From assembly GCA_024637095.1 (NCBI GenBank), contig JAGXFV010000018.1, positions 62,001 through 126,000 of the forward strand: a stretch of DNA of 64,000 nucleotides, read 5' to 3'. This DNA comes from Actinomycetes bacterium (GTDB lineage: Bacteria > Actinomycetota > Thermoleophilia > RBG-16-64-13). The notes under the pieces were generated by a model. That model had not been told where the DNA came from and ran no database searches. It saw nothing but the letters and a program-made list of their open reading frames with translations. Made by a program: the position numbers and the translations under genes. This document shows, one piece after another, positions 11,435 to 30,651 of this stretch (position 1 is the stretch's first letter; each line of letters begins with the position of its first letter).

Positions 11435-12895
11435 CTAGTCCGTCCCGATGATGGTGCCCGCCGCGACAACCCGGTTCTGGGAATAGAGCACGGCTACCTG
11501 ACCGGGGGCAACCCCGCGGACGGGCCGGGACAAACTCAGGATCAGCCGGTCTTCCGGCCCGGTCTCCACCTCGGCCCTCGTCGAGCCGCCGGAAGAACGC
11601 AGTTGCACCTCAGCCTGCGCCGGCAGGCTCTTCCGATGAAGGACCACCTCCCCCACCACCACTCGGTGAACGTCGGCGGCTTCGCCCGGTCCCACCACCA
11701 CCGTCTGCTGCTCCGGACGCAACGCAACCACGTACTGGGGCTGTGAAGCGGAAATGCCCAGACCCCGCCGCTGCCCAATGGTGAAGCCGTAGAGACCCTC
11801 GTGGCTTCCCAGTCGGCGCCCTTCGCGGTCCACGATTGGACCAGGAGCCTCGGGTAGCCGTTCGCGAAGGAACCGGCGATAGTCGTCGTCGGGAACGAAG
11901 CAGATTTCCTGGCTCTCCGGGCGATCGTGCACAGTGAGGCCCCTTTCCCTGGCGAGTTCACGCACGGCCGGCTTGGTCAGCTCACCCAGGGGGAAGAGCA
12001 TCCTTCGGAGAAGTCCAGGATCCACCAGGGCGAGCACGTAGGATTGATCCTTGTCCGGGTCCTGGCCCCGAGCGAGGCTTCCCTCCGGCTGCAGCATGCG
12101 GGCGTAGTGGCCGGTCGCGCCCCACTCGGCGCCCAGACGGTCCGCCAATTCGAGCAACTCCCCGAAGCGGACCGCGGCGTTGCAGCGCGCGCAGGGATTG
12201 GGCGTCCGGGCTTGGCCATATTCGGCCACGAAGTACTCCACGACCTCGGCGTAGAACTTCTGGCTGAGATCGACAACGAAGTGCGCCAATCCCAGTTGAT
12301 GGGCCAGGTCGCGGGCGTCTCTGACCGCCTCGGGCGAACAGCAGGCGTTGTCCAGACCGCAGGCGGGGTCACTCCAGAGGCGAAAGGTGACGCCGATGGG
12401 GTGCAGCCCGTCTTCCAGCAGACGGACTGCGGCCACCGCGCTGTCCACGCCTCCGCTCATGCCCACCACGACTCCTCGGGGGTCCCGGGCGCCACCCTGG
12501 GGCGTGAGGGGTACGTCCCGGGAGATCAGGGACTGTAGGGCCTGATGCAGGGCGTCGACACCGGCTTCCACGCAGCTGCGTCTCTCGGGGGGGAGTTCGA
12601 GGTCGGCGAGCAGGGAGGCCCAGCCCACCCGGGCCGCGTCCAGCACGGTGCGGCCCCGGATTCTGCGAACAACCTCACTCGCTCCGGCGATCGCTGCCGG
12701 GCAACCGTACGCCCTGAAACCGGCGTCGGTGGCCACACCGTTTCTCACCTGCAGGTCGATGCGGACAAGGTCGCCGCAGCGACGACTGCCCGCCTCTCCG
12801 GTGACGTCAGGGGCGCTCAGCCCGCCCGCCCCTGCGGGATTGGCGAAGTTCTCGAGCAGAAGTTGACTGTAATAGGGGGATCGATAGGCGGACAT
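11435..12895 (-). CDS. mnmA: IscU/NifU-like scaffold domain fused to tRNA 2-thiouridylase MnmA
   Basis: MnmA makes the s2 group of U34 in Lys, Glu and Gln tRNAs. From the ATG at 12895 the protein has 486 residues. Residues 1-125 form an IscU-like domain with all three cluster cysteines (C40 in CGD, C65 in YGC, C108 in RSCVEAG). The MnmA part starts near 140 with the PP-loop SGGVDS (147-152). It has NPCARCN (C235, C238) where E. coli-type enzymes have NPDxxCN, and QEIC (C332). Three cysteines are thus available for an Fe-S cluster. In-frame TTG 12907 and ATG 12904 are alternative starts. No ribosome-binding site is seen; a TAGAAT lies at 12907-12912. No iscS is in the window. Confidence 0.9.
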   Translation of the reverse strand: MSAYRSPYYSQLLLENFANPAGAGGLSAPDVTGEAGSRRCGDLVRIDLQVRNGVATDAGFRAYGCPAAIAGASEVVRRIRGRTVLDAARVGWASLLADLELPPERRSCVEAGVDALHQALQSLISRDVPLTPQGGARDPRGVVVGMSGGVDSAVAAVRLLEDGLHPIGVTFRLWSDPACGLDNACCSPEAVRDARDLAHQLGLAHFVVDLSQKFYAEVVEYFVAEYGQARTPNPCARCNAAVRFGELLELADRLGAEWGATGHYARMLQPEGSLARGQDPDKDQSYVLALVDPGLLRRMLFPLGELTKPAVRELARERGLTVHDRPESQEICFVPDDDYRRFLRERLPEAPGPIVDREGRRLGSHEGLYGFTIGQRRGLGISASQPQYVVALRPEQQTVVVGPGEAADVHRVVVGEVVLHRKSLPAQAEVQLRSSGGSTRAEVETGPEDRLILSLSRPVRGVAPGQVAVLYSQNRVVAAGTIIGTD

Positions 12896-12939
12896 CAGAA
12901 GCATCAATTCTACGGCATTCGCCCGGCGCGCAACGAAAC

Positions 12940-12991: not shown

Positions 12992-13531
12992 TCAGCTGAT
13001 GTTGGCCACGCTCTGGAAGAGGGTGCCCTGGTCCACGTAGCCGGAGATCACCTTGTTGATGAGACCTTCATCGTTGATGAACATGAGCTGGGGCGGGTAG
13101 TCCACCCGGAGCTTGCGGCCCAGGTTGCCATAGGACTCAGGGTCCTTGAAGTCGTAACTGAGAAAGCGGATCTCCGGATAGTCGGTCGCCACCGCATCGA
13201 CGGACTCGCGGACCCGCATGTCGTCTTCGCCGCCACTGACATAGAACAGGATCACCATCGGTTGGCCCTGCTCGGCCGCTTCCTGCACCTCGAGTGGCGT
13301 CTCTTCATTTAGTTCCAGATAGGAGCCGGCCAGTTCCTCATGGGGGATCACCTCGGCGGCCGGTTCCGTGGGAACCGCTGCTGCGGCCAGAGTGGTTGTA
13401 GTCTCCTGAGCCTCGGCCCCACCACCGCAACCCGAAGCCGCGACGGCTCCTGTGAGGAGGGTGAGGAGGATGAGCGCGAGGAAGAGGAGTCGGAATGTTC
13501 CGAGACGCCCGCGGTCAACGGATGCAGCCAT
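12992..13531 (-). CDS. Thioredoxin-fold lipoprotein lacking the CXXC active site
   Basis: I chose the ATG at 13531, 6 nt after GGAGG; the frame extends upstream into the RNA gene, but that part is unlikely to be translated. The 179-residue protein has a signal peptide (TFRLLFLALILLTLLTGAV) and a lipobox ending ASGC, so it should be lipid-anchored outside the membrane. After a Thr/Ala-rich linker comes a thioredoxin-like domain: VILFYVSGGEDD where WCxxC is expected, LSYDFKDPE, then YPPQLMFIN with the cis-Pro position. The redox cysteines are absent, so a binding or structural role is more likely than disulfide exchange. The partner is unknown. Confidence 0.75.
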   Translation of the reverse strand: MAASVDRGRLGTFRLLFLALILLTLLTGAVAASGCGGGAEAQETTTTLAAAAVPTEPAAEVIPHEELAGSYLELNEETPLEVQEAAEQGQPMVILFYVSGGEDDMRVRESVDAVATDYPEIRFLSYDFKDPESYGNLGRKLRVDYPPQLMFINDEGLINKVISGYVDQGTLFQSVANIS

Positions 13532-13544
13532 AGTGTGCCTCCAC

Positions 13545-13700
13545 AAAAAAATGCTCCACCTTGCCGTGTCTGACATGTTCCTGAACCTGCTTTAGCAGGT
13601 GGGTGGCGCCTCGCCGGAGGGCATTGCCGCCCGGAAAAATTCGCCTCCCGTTCAGAATGTGTTGGCTCAAGAAGTAGCCAGCTCACGTACAAGGTCGAGC
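13545..13700 (-). ncRNA. ssrS: 6S-like RNA (SsrS candidate)
   Basis: 6S RNA mimics an open promoter and binds the housekeeping RNA polymerase holoenzyme. Here a roughly 156-nt RNA is predicted from a promoter 7 nt upstream. The 5' arm (13690-13700) pairs with the 3' arm (13553-13563) over 11 positions with one mismatch, and a run of seven T follows. Further inward, CGTG pairs with CACG and CTGGC with GTCAG, extending the closing stem. An open bubble then precedes a terminal stem (CTGAA with TTCAG) and a small hairpin ACCTGC-TAAA-GCAGGT. The 3' part contains GGTTCAGG and CGGCA, as in many 6S RNAs. From memory, B. subtilis bsrA also lies next to aspS. Identification is by eye. Confidence 0.7.
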
Positions 13701-27692: not shown

Positions 27693-28832
27693 TTACCACC
27701 CCGCGCTTACAGAACGGCGATACTCCCCGAAGCGCCGCTCACGAATGGCCTCGCGGGCGCCATCAACCAGGCGGAAGAGGTGCCTGAGATTGTGTTCGGT
27801 GAGTAATTGGGCGCCCAACATCTCCTTCTGGCTGACGAAGTGGCGGATGGCCCCCCGCGAGAAGGACCGGCAGGCGGTGCAGTCGCAGTCATCCTCCAGC
27901 GGGTCCGGGTCGGCTTTGAAGCGCGCGTTGCGCAGGTTGAGTCTGCCCTCCTTGGTGAAGGCGGTGCCCATCCGCGCCACCCGGGTGGGAAGCACGCAAT
28001 CGAAGAGGTCGACTCCGAGCGCGATCATGTCCATGATGCCTATCGGATCGCCGATGCCCATGAAGTAGCGGATGCGTTCCCAGGGAAGCAGGTCCACCGT
28101 AGACTTGGTGGATTGCAGCATCGACTCGCGATCCTCGCCCACAGAGAGGCCACCCACGGCGTAGCCGGGAAAGTCGATTTCGAGAAGCGCCTCGGCGCTC
28201 CGTCGCCTCAGGTCGGCGAAGGTGCCGCCCTGGACGATCCCCAAGAGCATTTGCGGGCCGCCGGCGCCCTGCCCCCCCGCGCCCAGGTGGGCCTCGCGGC
28301 AGCGGCGGGCCCAATCGGTGGTTCTTAGCACCGCGCGCTCCACCAGGGAACGGTCCCGGGTGGCCGGCGGGCACTCATCGAAGCACATGATGAAATCCGC
28401 CCCCAGCGCCTGTTGCTCGGCGATCGCCCGCTCGGGCGTGAAGAGGTGCCGCGAGCCGTCGTAGACCGAGCGAAAAGCCACCCCTTCGTCCTGGACGTCG
28501 GCCGTGTCCAGCAGGCTGAACACCTGGAAGCCGCCGCTGTCGGTGAGGATCGGTCCCTCCCAGCCCATGAAGCGGTGCAGGCCGCCCAGATCGCGCACCA
28601 CAGCGCTGCCCGGGCGGAGCGCCAGGTGATAGGTATTGGCCAGGATGATCTGCGCGCCCAGGCGCTCAAGGTCGGTGGGCAGCATCCCCTTTACCGTGCC
28701 TTTGGTGCCCACCGGCATGAAGCACGGGGTGGTCACCGCGCCGTGCGGCGTTTCGAGACGGCCCACCCGGGCCCGTCCGTCGGTGGCTTCCAGAGAAAAG
28801 GGAAAGGCGGGAAGACCGCCGTTGTTGCTCAT
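27693..28832 (-). CDS. tgt: Queuine tRNA-ribosyltransferase
   Basis: Bacterial TGT exchanges G34 of GUN-anticodon tRNAs for preQ1. The 379-residue protein has the substrate motif LTDSGGFQVFSL containing an active-site Asp, MCFDECPP, the GIVQGG base-recognition loop and the zinc site CDCTAC followed by a His ligand in LTEHNLRH. It overlaps queA by 4 nt (ATGA). Together with queA and queH it covers the tRNA-level steps of queuosine formation; no preQ1 synthesis genes are in the window. Confidence 0.96.
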   Translation of the reverse strand: MSNNGGLPAFPFSLEATDGRARVGRLETPHGAVTTPCFMPVGTKGTVKGMLPTDLERLGAQIILANTYHLALRPGSAVVRDLGGLHRFMGWEGPILTDSGGFQVFSLLDTADVQDEGVAFRSVYDGSRHLFTPERAIAEQQALGADFIMCFDECPPATRDRSLVERAVLRTTDWARRCREAHLGAGGQGAGGPQMLLGIVQGGTFADLRRRSAEALLEIDFPGYAVGGLSVGEDRESMLQSTKSTVDLLPWERIRYFMGIGDPIGIMDMIALGVDLFDCVLPTRVARMGTAFTKEGRLNLRNARFKADPDPLEDDCDCTACRSFSRGAIRHFVSQKEMLGAQLLTEHNLRHLFRLVDGAREAIRERRFGEYRRSVSAGW

Positions 28833-29890
28833 GTCACCAGCATGGCGTCGCCGAAGCTGAAGAAACGGTAGTGCCCGGCCACGGCCTCGGCGTAGGCCCG
28901 GCGGGTGGAGTCCACGCCGGCAAAGGCCATGACCAGCGCCAGGAGCGAGGTCCGCGGCAGATGGAAGTTCGTGAGCAGGGCGCCGACCGCGCGGAACCTG
29001 TACCCCGGGGTTATGTAGAGGCTGGTCCAGCCGCGGGGATCGGCGGGAGCAGGCTCTCCCGGGGAAGCGGCGCGGAAGAGGGTCTCCAGCACCCTCACCG
29101 AGGTGGTGCCCACCGCCACCAGCCGGCGATTCTCACGGCGGGCGAGGTTCAGTGTCCGCAGGGCCTCTTCGGGGACCGAGTACCACTCCTGATGGATGGG
29201 GTGGGCTTCAACCTCCTCCACCTGTATGGGACGAAAGGTGTCGAGTCCGACATGAAGCGTGACCGAGGCGGTTTCGACACCTCCGGCTTGTAGGTCGGAC
29301 AGCAGTTCGGGAGTGAAGTGCAGGCCCGCGGTGGGCGCCGCGGCCGAACCCGGATCACGCGCATAGACCGTTTGGTAGAGCTCGGGGTCGCCTGGGTCCT
29401 CGGTTATGTATGGCGGAAGCGGCGTCTTGCCCTGTCGTTCGAGAATCTCGGGGATGGATAGCAATCCCGCGGCGGCGACCACCCAGCGTCCCTCTCCCAG
29501 ATACCGATCCAGAAGGACCACCTCGTCCAGGTCGGCGCCCACGGCCAACTCCAGGCCGGCGCGCAGGCGTGACGAGGGCCGGGCAAGTGCCTCCCATCGC
29601 AGACCGGAGGGTGCATTGCCCACCTGCCCGGTGAACGGTGACAGGAAGAGGAGCTCCACCCTGCCCCCCGTGGGCTTGCGCGCGATGAGTCTTGCCGGAA
29701 GCACCCGGGAATCGTTGAGCACCAGGACGTCCCCCTCGCGGAGCATTTGGGGAAGTTGACGGAATTGGCGGTGCCCGATCCGGTCGGCCTTGCGGTCGAG
29801 GTGAAGCAGGCGGCAGGCGTCCCGCGGCTCCGTGGGATGCTGCGCGATGAGTTCCGGCGGTATCTCGAGATCGAGTTCTTCGATCCGCAC
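28829..29890 (-). CDS. queA: S-adenosylmethionine:tRNA ribosyltransferase-isomerase
   Basis: QueA transfers the ribosyl part of SAM to preQ1-modified tRNA to give epoxyqueuosine. The 353 residues include the typical N-terminus ELDLEIPPELIAQHP, VLNDSRVLPARL, YQTVYARDPGSAAAPTAGLH and SLYITPGYRF. The GTG start is preceded closely by the stop of the DUF2905 gene (TGACGTG). It is the middle of the tgt-queA-DUF2905-queH string, so the product passes directly to the reductase QueH encoded upstream. Confidence 0.96.
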   Translation of the reverse strand: MRIEELDLEIPPELIAQHPTEPRDACRLLHLDRKADRIGHRQFRQLPQMLREGDVLVLNDSRVLPARLIARKPTGGRVELLFLSPFTGQVGNAPSGLRWEALARPSSRLRAGLELAVGADLDEVVLLDRYLGEGRWVVAAAGLLSIPEILERQGKTPLPPYITEDPGDPELYQTVYARDPGSAAAPTAGLHFTPELLSDLQAGGVETASVTLHVGLDTFRPIQVEEVEAHPIHQEWYSVPEEALRTLNLARRENRRLVAVGTTSVRVLETLFRAASPGEPAPADPRGWTSLYITPGYRFRAVGALLTNFHLPRTSLLALVMAFAGVDSTRRAYAEAVAGHYRFFSFGDAMLVT

Positions 29891-29891
29891 G

Positions 29892-30110
29892 TCAGCGGCG
29901 AAAGATCAGGTTGAGCAGGACGGTCAGGGTGAGACTAACCAGGATCGAAAGGCCCAGGGGCACGTAGATGGTGGTCCGGCCCCCCCGCCAAACGATGTCC
30001 CCGGGCAGCCGTTCGAGGCCAAAGCGCCCCAGGAGGAGGAAGAGGGCTCCGACCAGGAGCAGCACCGCGCCGGCCACGAGTAAGAGGCGCCCCACAGTCT
30101 CGAAGCTCAT
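29892..30110 (-). CDS. DUF2905-family small membrane protein
   Basis: The frame extends further upstream, but the ATG at 30110, 4 nt after the queH stop, gives the typical 72-residue protein. It has two hydrophobic helices (VGRLLLVAGAVLLLVGALFLLLG and YVPLGLSILVSLTLTVLLNLIF). These flank the family signature LGRFGLERLPGDIVWRGGR. DUF2905 genes are often found among queuosine and ruv genes. Function is unknown. Confidence 0.85.
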   Translation of the reverse strand: MSFETVGRLLLVAGAVLLLVGALFLLLGRFGLERLPGDIVWRGGRTTIYVPLGLSILVSLTLTVLLNLIFRR

Positions 30111-30114
30111 CGTC

Positions 30115-30651
30115 TCAACCGGATTTCTGTCGGTAGCGCTCCCACTCGGAGAGCACGCAGCCGCAGTACTTCTGGCGGTAGAGTCCGGTCTGTTTCGCGG
30201 TCTCGCGCGAGGCCCGGTAGCGCGGGCGCAGATCCTCATAGAGGAAGGCAACACCGAAGGCCTGGGCGGCCTTCTGTCCCTCTTCGGCGATGGCGGTGTG
30301 GTCCTGCCAGGGACTGATGGCTAGGCTCGTGGTGAAGGAGTCGCAACCGGCGGCGGCGGCTTCGCGCGCCGCCCTATCCATCCGGGCGCCGATGCAGCGC
30401 CGGCACCGGTCGGCCTCCTGGGGCCGCACCTCGGTGAACCAACGGGCCGGGTCGTAGGTCGCGTCCAGCCGCAGCTCGAAGTCGGCGTTATCGGCCAATT
30501 CCTCCGCCCCCGTCAGCCGCCGCTGGTGTTCCATGAAGGGGTGAATATTGGGATTGTAAAAGAAACCGGTCACGTCGTGCCCGGCCTCGCGCCAGTGCGC
30601 CACCGTCTCGGTGGCGCAGGGCCCGCAACAGATGTGAATCAGAGTACGCAT
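30115..30651 (-). CDS. queH: Epoxyqueuosine reductase QueH
   Basis: QueH reduces epoxyqueuosine in tRNA to queuosine and replaces the cobalamin enzyme QueG. The 178-residue protein has the adjacent-cysteine motif CCGPC near residues 9-13, CRRC near 93 and YCGC near 162. These are the ligands and active-site cysteines known for QueH. FFYNPNIHPF and TTSLAISPWQ are also characteristic. It follows ruvB by 48 nt and precedes DUF2905 and queA, completing the tRNA queuosine branch. Confidence 0.95.
   Translation of the reverse strand: MRTLIHICCGPCATETVAHWREAGHDVTGFFYNPNIHPFMEHQRRLTGAEELADNADFELRLDATYDPARWFTEVRPQEADRCRRCIGARMDRAAREAAAAGCDSFTTSLAISPWQDHTAIAEEGQKAAQAFGVAFLYEDLRPRYRASRETAKQTGLYRQKYCGCVLSEWERYRQKSG

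What the first reader, a model, noticed from the sequence alone, without database searches (positions are those of the whole stretch)
11435..12895. IscU-type Fe-S scaffold fused to a three-cysteine MnmA
The N-terminal 125 residues keep all three IscU cluster cysteines (C40, C65, C108, with Asp after the first). The MnmA half carries C235, C238 and C332, replacing the Asp of the usual NPDxxCN by Cys. TtuA/NcsA-type thiolases bind a [4Fe-4S] cluster with three cysteines, and Fe-S-dependent MnmA has been proposed. A scaffold joined to such an enzyme would deliver the cluster in cis. Domain assignment is from motifs I can see; the delivery role is inference.
Basis: partly seen in the sequence, partly recalled or inferred. 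Interest (0 to 1): 0.7.

Follow-up and report, generated by a model that had tools for sequence, protein, structure and literature searches.

The report
Altered IscU domain fused to tRNA thiolase
A bacterial enzyme that puts sulfur on tRNA (MnmA) carries, as one protein, a changed copy of an iron-sulfur assembly protein (IscU); the fusion is real and common in its bacterial class, but the IscU half has nearly always lost part of its cluster-building site, so it more likely passes on sulfur or docks the sulfur donor than builds clusters.

Summary
It is no assembly join: it recurs at 89% identity in a congener, in at least 82 of 143 same-class genomes with a match, and in four other families of the phylum. 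The class is probably Thermoleophilia. The three-cysteine MnmA half is the already described C-type (CC-CxxC-C), reported as [4Fe-4S]-dependent, and it also occurs without the fusion. The delivery idea fares worse. IscU has Cys-Asp-Cys-His-Cys. None of 97 readable fused domains has all five: 58 keep the His and lose the third Cys, 14 (this one included) keep the third Cys and lose the His, the rest lose more. Separate IscU proteins encoded beside mnmA are nearly all intact. In one family the operon's IscU-like protein lacks its third Cys even where unfused. The genome has a normal IscS-IscU pair elsewhere. Best reading: a specialised desulfurase-docking and sulfur-relay module from the iscS-iscU-mnmA operon, fused to C-type MnmA. 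In-cis cluster delivery is not excluded for this protein.

The parts
11435..12895 (-). NifU_N::MnmA fusion gene, 486 aa, with stop (possible earlier starts at 12904 ATG and 12907 TTG)
12530..12871 (-). IscU/NifU_N domain, residues 9-122
   Evidence: Pfam PF01592 71 bits; IscU fold in the predicted model
12770..12778 (-). C40-G41-D42, first cluster-site motif (E. coli IscU C37/D39)
12701..12703 (-). C65 (E. coli IscU C63)
12572..12577 (-). S107-C108: the IscU His105 position is Ser, the third Cys is kept
12473..12529 (-). linker, residues 123-141, without cysteines
11450..12472 (-). MnmA: PP-loop domain and two C-terminal barrels, residues 142-482
12338..12343 (-). C185-C186, CC of the C-type MnmA motif
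   Evidence: sequence
12182..12193 (-). C235-x-x-C238 in NPCARCN
11900..11902 (-). C332 in ESQEICF

Best explanation
The gene encodes a C-type MnmA, the [4Fe-4S]-type tRNA U34 2-thiolase, with an N-terminal domain derived from the IscU of an iscS-iscU-mnmA operon. The domain most likely no longer builds clusters for general use. It keeps the IscU fold and usually a four-ligand metal site (Cys, Asp, Cys plus either His or the third Cys). It most likely docks the cysteine desulfurase, takes its persulfide sulfur and hands it in cis to the cluster-bearing MnmA site. Shown here: the fusion, its spread, the operon it most simply descends from, the changed ligand set, both folds (predicted), and purifying selection. 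Inferred: metal binding, desulfurase docking, sulfur transfer, and the direction of flow.
For: (1) Gene order IscS - IscU - MnmA is found as separate genes in several families of the phylum and in Clostridia, Syntrophaceae, Brocadiaceae, Patescibacteria and Latescibacterota; in one family (f18) the fused gene lies right behind IscS in 17 of 17 loci. This ties the domain to the desulfurase that feeds MnmA. (2) Site residues (checked): 58 of 97 readable fused domains are C-D-C-H-[A/G/V], 14 are C-D-C-x-C (this protein: C40, D42, C65, S107, C108), none is C-D-C-H-C. The first pattern is the metal-ligand set of free ISCU (Cys69, Asp71, Cys95, His137) without the persulfide acceptor Cys138 (PMC11021402). 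The second is like zinc SufU, where the His is replaced and the first Cys of the C-G-D motif accepts the sulfur (PMC10216065). (3) In f18 three unfused IscU-like proteins of this operon also lack the third Cys, so the change does not depend on fusion. (4) A canonical IscU with its IscS sits elsewhere in the genome. In the domain tree the separate operon IscUs outside f18 and this genome's own IscU form a clade apart from the fused domains except two f68 rows (98/94). (5) dN/dS of the IscU half is 0.19.
Against: No binding or activity data. In part of the window's own family, in f3 and in f11 the metal site is lost; in f6 the domain is cut to about 75 residues without the cysteines; five family members lack it. 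A sulfur-transfer role therefore cannot be general, and docking or structure alone could suffice. No desulfurase gene is next to the fusion in this window. The genome has a TusA-like protein, a possible alternative relay. This protein keeps all three Cys and the Asp, so it might still hold a cluster.
Confidence: 0.48

Rival explanations
1. The N-terminal domain is mainly a docking or structural module (IscS binding, tRNA binding or enzyme stability) with no metal or sulfur chemistry of its own; the cysteines are leftovers.
For: Site residues are lost while the domain stays in f3, f11 and four of ten fused members of the window's family. f6 keeps a compacted remnant of about 75 residues without the site cysteines. 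The two halves are placed with good confidence in the model (pTM 0.88).
Against: Most fused domains (72 of 97) keep Cys, Asp, Cys and exactly one of His/Cys, unexpected if the site were idle.
Confidence: 0.27
2. One reading: the IscU half assembles an Fe-S cluster and delivers it in cis to the three-cysteine site of MnmA.
For: This protein keeps C40, D42, C65 and C108. C-type MnmA is reported to need a [4Fe-4S] cluster. IscU variants changed at the His have solved structures of the same fold (7c8n, 7cnv), so its loss need not destroy the domain.
Against: None of 97 readable fused domains has the full IscU site; 58 lack the third Cys and others more, although their MnmA keeps its CxxC and distal Cys. 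Unfused C-type MnmAs manage without the domain. The genome has a normal IscU.
Confidence: 0.17
3. A frameshift, assembly join or chance fusion without function.
For: None found beyond in-frame stops in three relatives' assemblies (G186, G250, G055).
Against: Same frame in a congener at 89% identity and across the class and phylum; purifying selection on both halves.
Confidence: 0.02

Closest known systems
C-type MnmA (Shigi et al. 2020, RNA; cited in PMC11784392, PMC10067955 and PMC9821441)
   Same: PP-loop, CC-CxxC-C motif, full-length MnmA match
   Different: carries an extra N-terminal IscU-like domain
IscU / NifU N-terminal scaffold
   Same: fold, length between the second and third Cys, C-G-D and GC motifs, an LPP stretch before the third Cys
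   Different: fused to MnmA; His before the third Cys lost (third Cys lost in most relatives); far below the IscU/NifU equivalog cut-offs
SufU zinc sulfurtransferase
   Same: three Cys and Asp without the His before the third Cys, as in M. tuberculosis SufU
   Different: lacks the 21-23 residue SufU insertion; weak SufU match, 33 bits against a cut-off of 92.5; sulfur acceptance untested
iscS-iscU-mnmA operon with separate genes (for example in Clostridia)
   Same: same three partners, C-type MnmA
   Different: IscU is a separate, intact protein

Membership tests
C-type MnmA | PP-loop SGGVDS and full-length MnmA match above the curated cut-off | tested here: met
   NF001138 367 bits, cut-off 284
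C-type MnmA | CC-CxxC-C motif | tested here: met
   C185-C186, C235xxC238, C332
C-type MnmA | catalytic [4Fe-4S] cluster | not testable with these tools
   needs anaerobic biochemistry
IscU/NifU_N scaffold | NifU_N domain above gathering score and IscU fold | tested here: met
   71 bits; many IscU structures with TMt 0.8-0.9 and Z about 18-21
IscU/NifU_N scaffold | complete site Cys-Asp-Cys-His-Cys | tested here: not met
   His is Ser107 here; none of 97 readable fused domains is complete
IscU/NifU_N scaffold | equivalog cut-off of IscU, NifU or clostridial NifU models | tested here: not met
   63, 58 and 70 bits against 192, 273 and 188
IscU/NifU_N scaffold | assembles a cluster | not testable with these tools
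   experiment needed
SufU | three Cys and Asp, no His before the third Cys | tested here: met
   C40, D42, C65, S107-C108 (compare)
SufU | insertion of 21-23 residues between the second and third Cys | tested here: not met
   43 residues from C65 to C108, as in E. coli IscU
SufU | zinc binding and persulfide acceptance | not testable with these tools
   experiment needed

The most novel reading that the evidence does not exclude
An iron-sulfur scaffold that was turned, perhaps repeatedly, into a dedicated sulfur-relay domain: in these bacteria the IscU of the mnmA operon gave up cluster building, kept a single-metal site with alternative fourth ligands, and was fused to a cluster-bearing tRNA thiolase, making an in-cis desulfurase-to-tRNA sulfur channel.
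Probability: 0.4. Interest if true: 0.6.

Novelty: new variant of a known kind. Interest (0 to 1): 0.45.

Why it matters
How sulfur reaches MnmA, as a protein persulfide or through a [4Fe-4S] cluster, is openly disputed (PMC11784392). A natural fusion that ties an IscU-derived domain to a C-type MnmA, with natural variants that lack one or more site residues, offers a direct test: which cysteines of the extra domain matter, and whether sulfur or a cluster moves between the halves.

Tried and rejected
Assembly join or frameshift: rejected by the class-wide survey. The idea that the three Cys of MnmA came with the fusion: rejected, all 37 unfused C-type rows in the set have the CxxC and the distal Cys (the one D-type row is a gammaproteobacterial outgroup). 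The idea that the fused IscU is the genome's only scaffold: rejected, a canonical IscU sits next to a NifS/IscS desulfurase. The genome has no SufB/SufD match. A single fusion event could not be settled: f50/f68 and f11 lie apart in the MnmA tree while f76 has separate genes inside the class, and the domain tree has few columns. The genome-contig scan used a pattern in the MnmA part and so gave mostly unfused loci. The first broad alignment for folding misplaced the NifU rows; A4 was used instead. The Shigi 2020 and Zhou 2021 papers are not held in the library and are known here only through papers that cite them. No paper found in the held library describes the fusion (titles and abstracts read, not all full texts).

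Full report
WHAT IS THERE. The open frame lies on the minus strand, window 12895 to 11435. Its 486 residues hold a NifU_N domain (9-122), a linker without cysteines (123-141) and a full MnmA (142-482). PF03054 gives two further weak, partial hits in the genome, so this is its only convincing MnmA. A predicted structure from a 12-row alignment is confident nearly throughout (mean pLDDT 90.7, pTM 0.88). Its halves match MnmA (2hma, 2deu: Z about 40) and IscU (several entries, Z about 18-21).

IS IT REAL. The same frame exists in a congener at 89% identity and, with the match starting within the first 35 query residues, in at least 82 of the 143 same-class genomes with a match (my count of the rows). 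It is also found in families f18, f50, f68 and f11 of the same phylum. A named relative, L144, is Solirubrobacterales and falls inside the class in the MnmA tree, so the class is probably Thermoleophilia. Between the window's gene and the congener, dN/dS is 0.19 for the IscU half and 0.17 for the MnmA half.

THE MnmA HALF IS A KNOWN TYPE. MnmAs are divided into D-type (C-DxxC-C) and C-type (CC-CxxC-C) (PMC11784392). Published work cited there and in PMC10067955 and PMC9821441 reports [4Fe-4S]-dependent MnmA, while the E. coli D-type case is disputed. The window protein has C185-C186, C235xxC238 and C332. In the set of 136 MnmA halves, all 98 fused ones have the CxxC and the distal Cys, and 97 of them have the CC. 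All 37 unfused C-type rows have the CxxC and distal Cys too, including relatives of the same family that lack the extra domain. The three cysteines therefore do not depend on the fusion.

WHERE THE IscU HALF COMES FROM. Separate genes in the order IscS - IscU - MnmA occur in families f24, f62, f46, f36 and f76 (in the f36 loci MnmA is not immediately adjacent) and in genomes of Clostridia, Syntrophaceae, Brocadiaceae, Latescibacterota and Patescibacteria. In f18 the fused gene follows IscS directly in 17 of 17 loci. The fusion is thus most simply a joining of the last two genes of this operon. Whether it happened once or several times is open. In this window no desulfurase is adjacent; the genome has an IscS/NifS next to a canonical IscU on contig 42, a second, SclA/EF2568-like desulfurase, one TusA-like protein, and no SufB/SufD or DsrC/TusE match.

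THE SITE IS CHANGED. I compared the residues aligned to E. coli IscU C37, D39, C63, H105 and C106 (checked). Of 97 readable fused domains none is complete. Fifty-eight (f2, f4, f5, f18, f77, f78, L144) are C-D-C-H with A, G or V at the last place. Fourteen (six of f1 including this one, five f50, one f68, two f7) are C-D-C-x-C. The remaining ones lose the Asp or more (four of f1, f3, f11) or the first Cys (one f68). Family f6 keeps only about 75 residues of the domain without these cysteines. Of the separate operon IscUs outside f18, 11 of 12 are complete and one is cut short; of 22 from other phyla I read 21 as complete, L147 lacking the first Cys and Asp. Three unfused f18 proteins are C-D-C-H-A. 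In the domain tree the separate IscUs outside f18, including this genome's own, form one clade that leaves out the fused domains except two f68 rows (98/94).

WHAT THIS SUGGESTS. In human ISCU2, free metal is held by Cys69, Asp71, Cys95 and His137, while Cys138 takes the persulfide and the C138S variant takes none (PMC11021402). In mycobacterial SufU, a zinc sulfurtransferase, a Lys stands in place of that His, and Cys40, the first Cys of the C-G-D motif, is the acceptor (PMC10216065). So the two common patterns of the fused domains resemble, respectively, the ISCU metal site without its acceptor and the SufU site. I therefore infer a one-metal, desulfurase-docking, sulfur-passing module that feeds the attached MnmA. 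The inference is moderate: several lineages have lost the site and keep the domain, so pure docking or structure is a serious rival. Cluster delivery remains possible for this protein, which has three Cys and Asp, but it is not supported by the pattern in its relatives.

LIMITS. Everything functional is inference. Counts come from sampled genomes with unnamed handles and from alignment positions, and related genomes are not independent. The tree of the short IscU domain is weak. The library holds only open-access papers, so absence of a report of the fusion is not proof that it is undescribed.

Noticed in passing
window 12992-13576, minus strand: A thioredoxin-fold, lipoprotein-like protein just upstream of the fusion; the weak Thioredoxin_2 match and the sequence show no CxxC (VSGGED at that place), so its redox cysteines seem lost.
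   Followed up: no
window 27693-30651, minus strand: Cluster that reads as tgt, queA and a QueH-like cysteine-rich protein, i.e. queuosine synthesis, from sequence reading only.
   Followed up: no
L105-L110, L112-L115: Family f6: the IscU half fused to MnmA has shrunk to about 75 residues without the cluster cysteines, yet is still present.
   Followed up: partly
L120-L124: Five genomes of the window's own family carry MnmA without the IscU domain, so it can be lost.
   Followed up: partly
L189-L191: Unfused IscU-like genes of the f18 operon, lying against or overlapping MnmA, also lack the third Cys.
   Followed up: partly
PDB 9hln against 9hlv and 2hma: A solved MnmA chain, nearly identical to S. 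pneumoniae MnmA (2hma), has NPCVMCN where the others have NPDVMCN, apparently a made D-to-C variant.
   Followed up: no
L204, 16085-17248, minus strand: A second desulfurase, near selenocysteine lyase SclA/EF2568, beside an AAA-type (MoxR-like) ATPase gene in the same genome.
   Followed up: no
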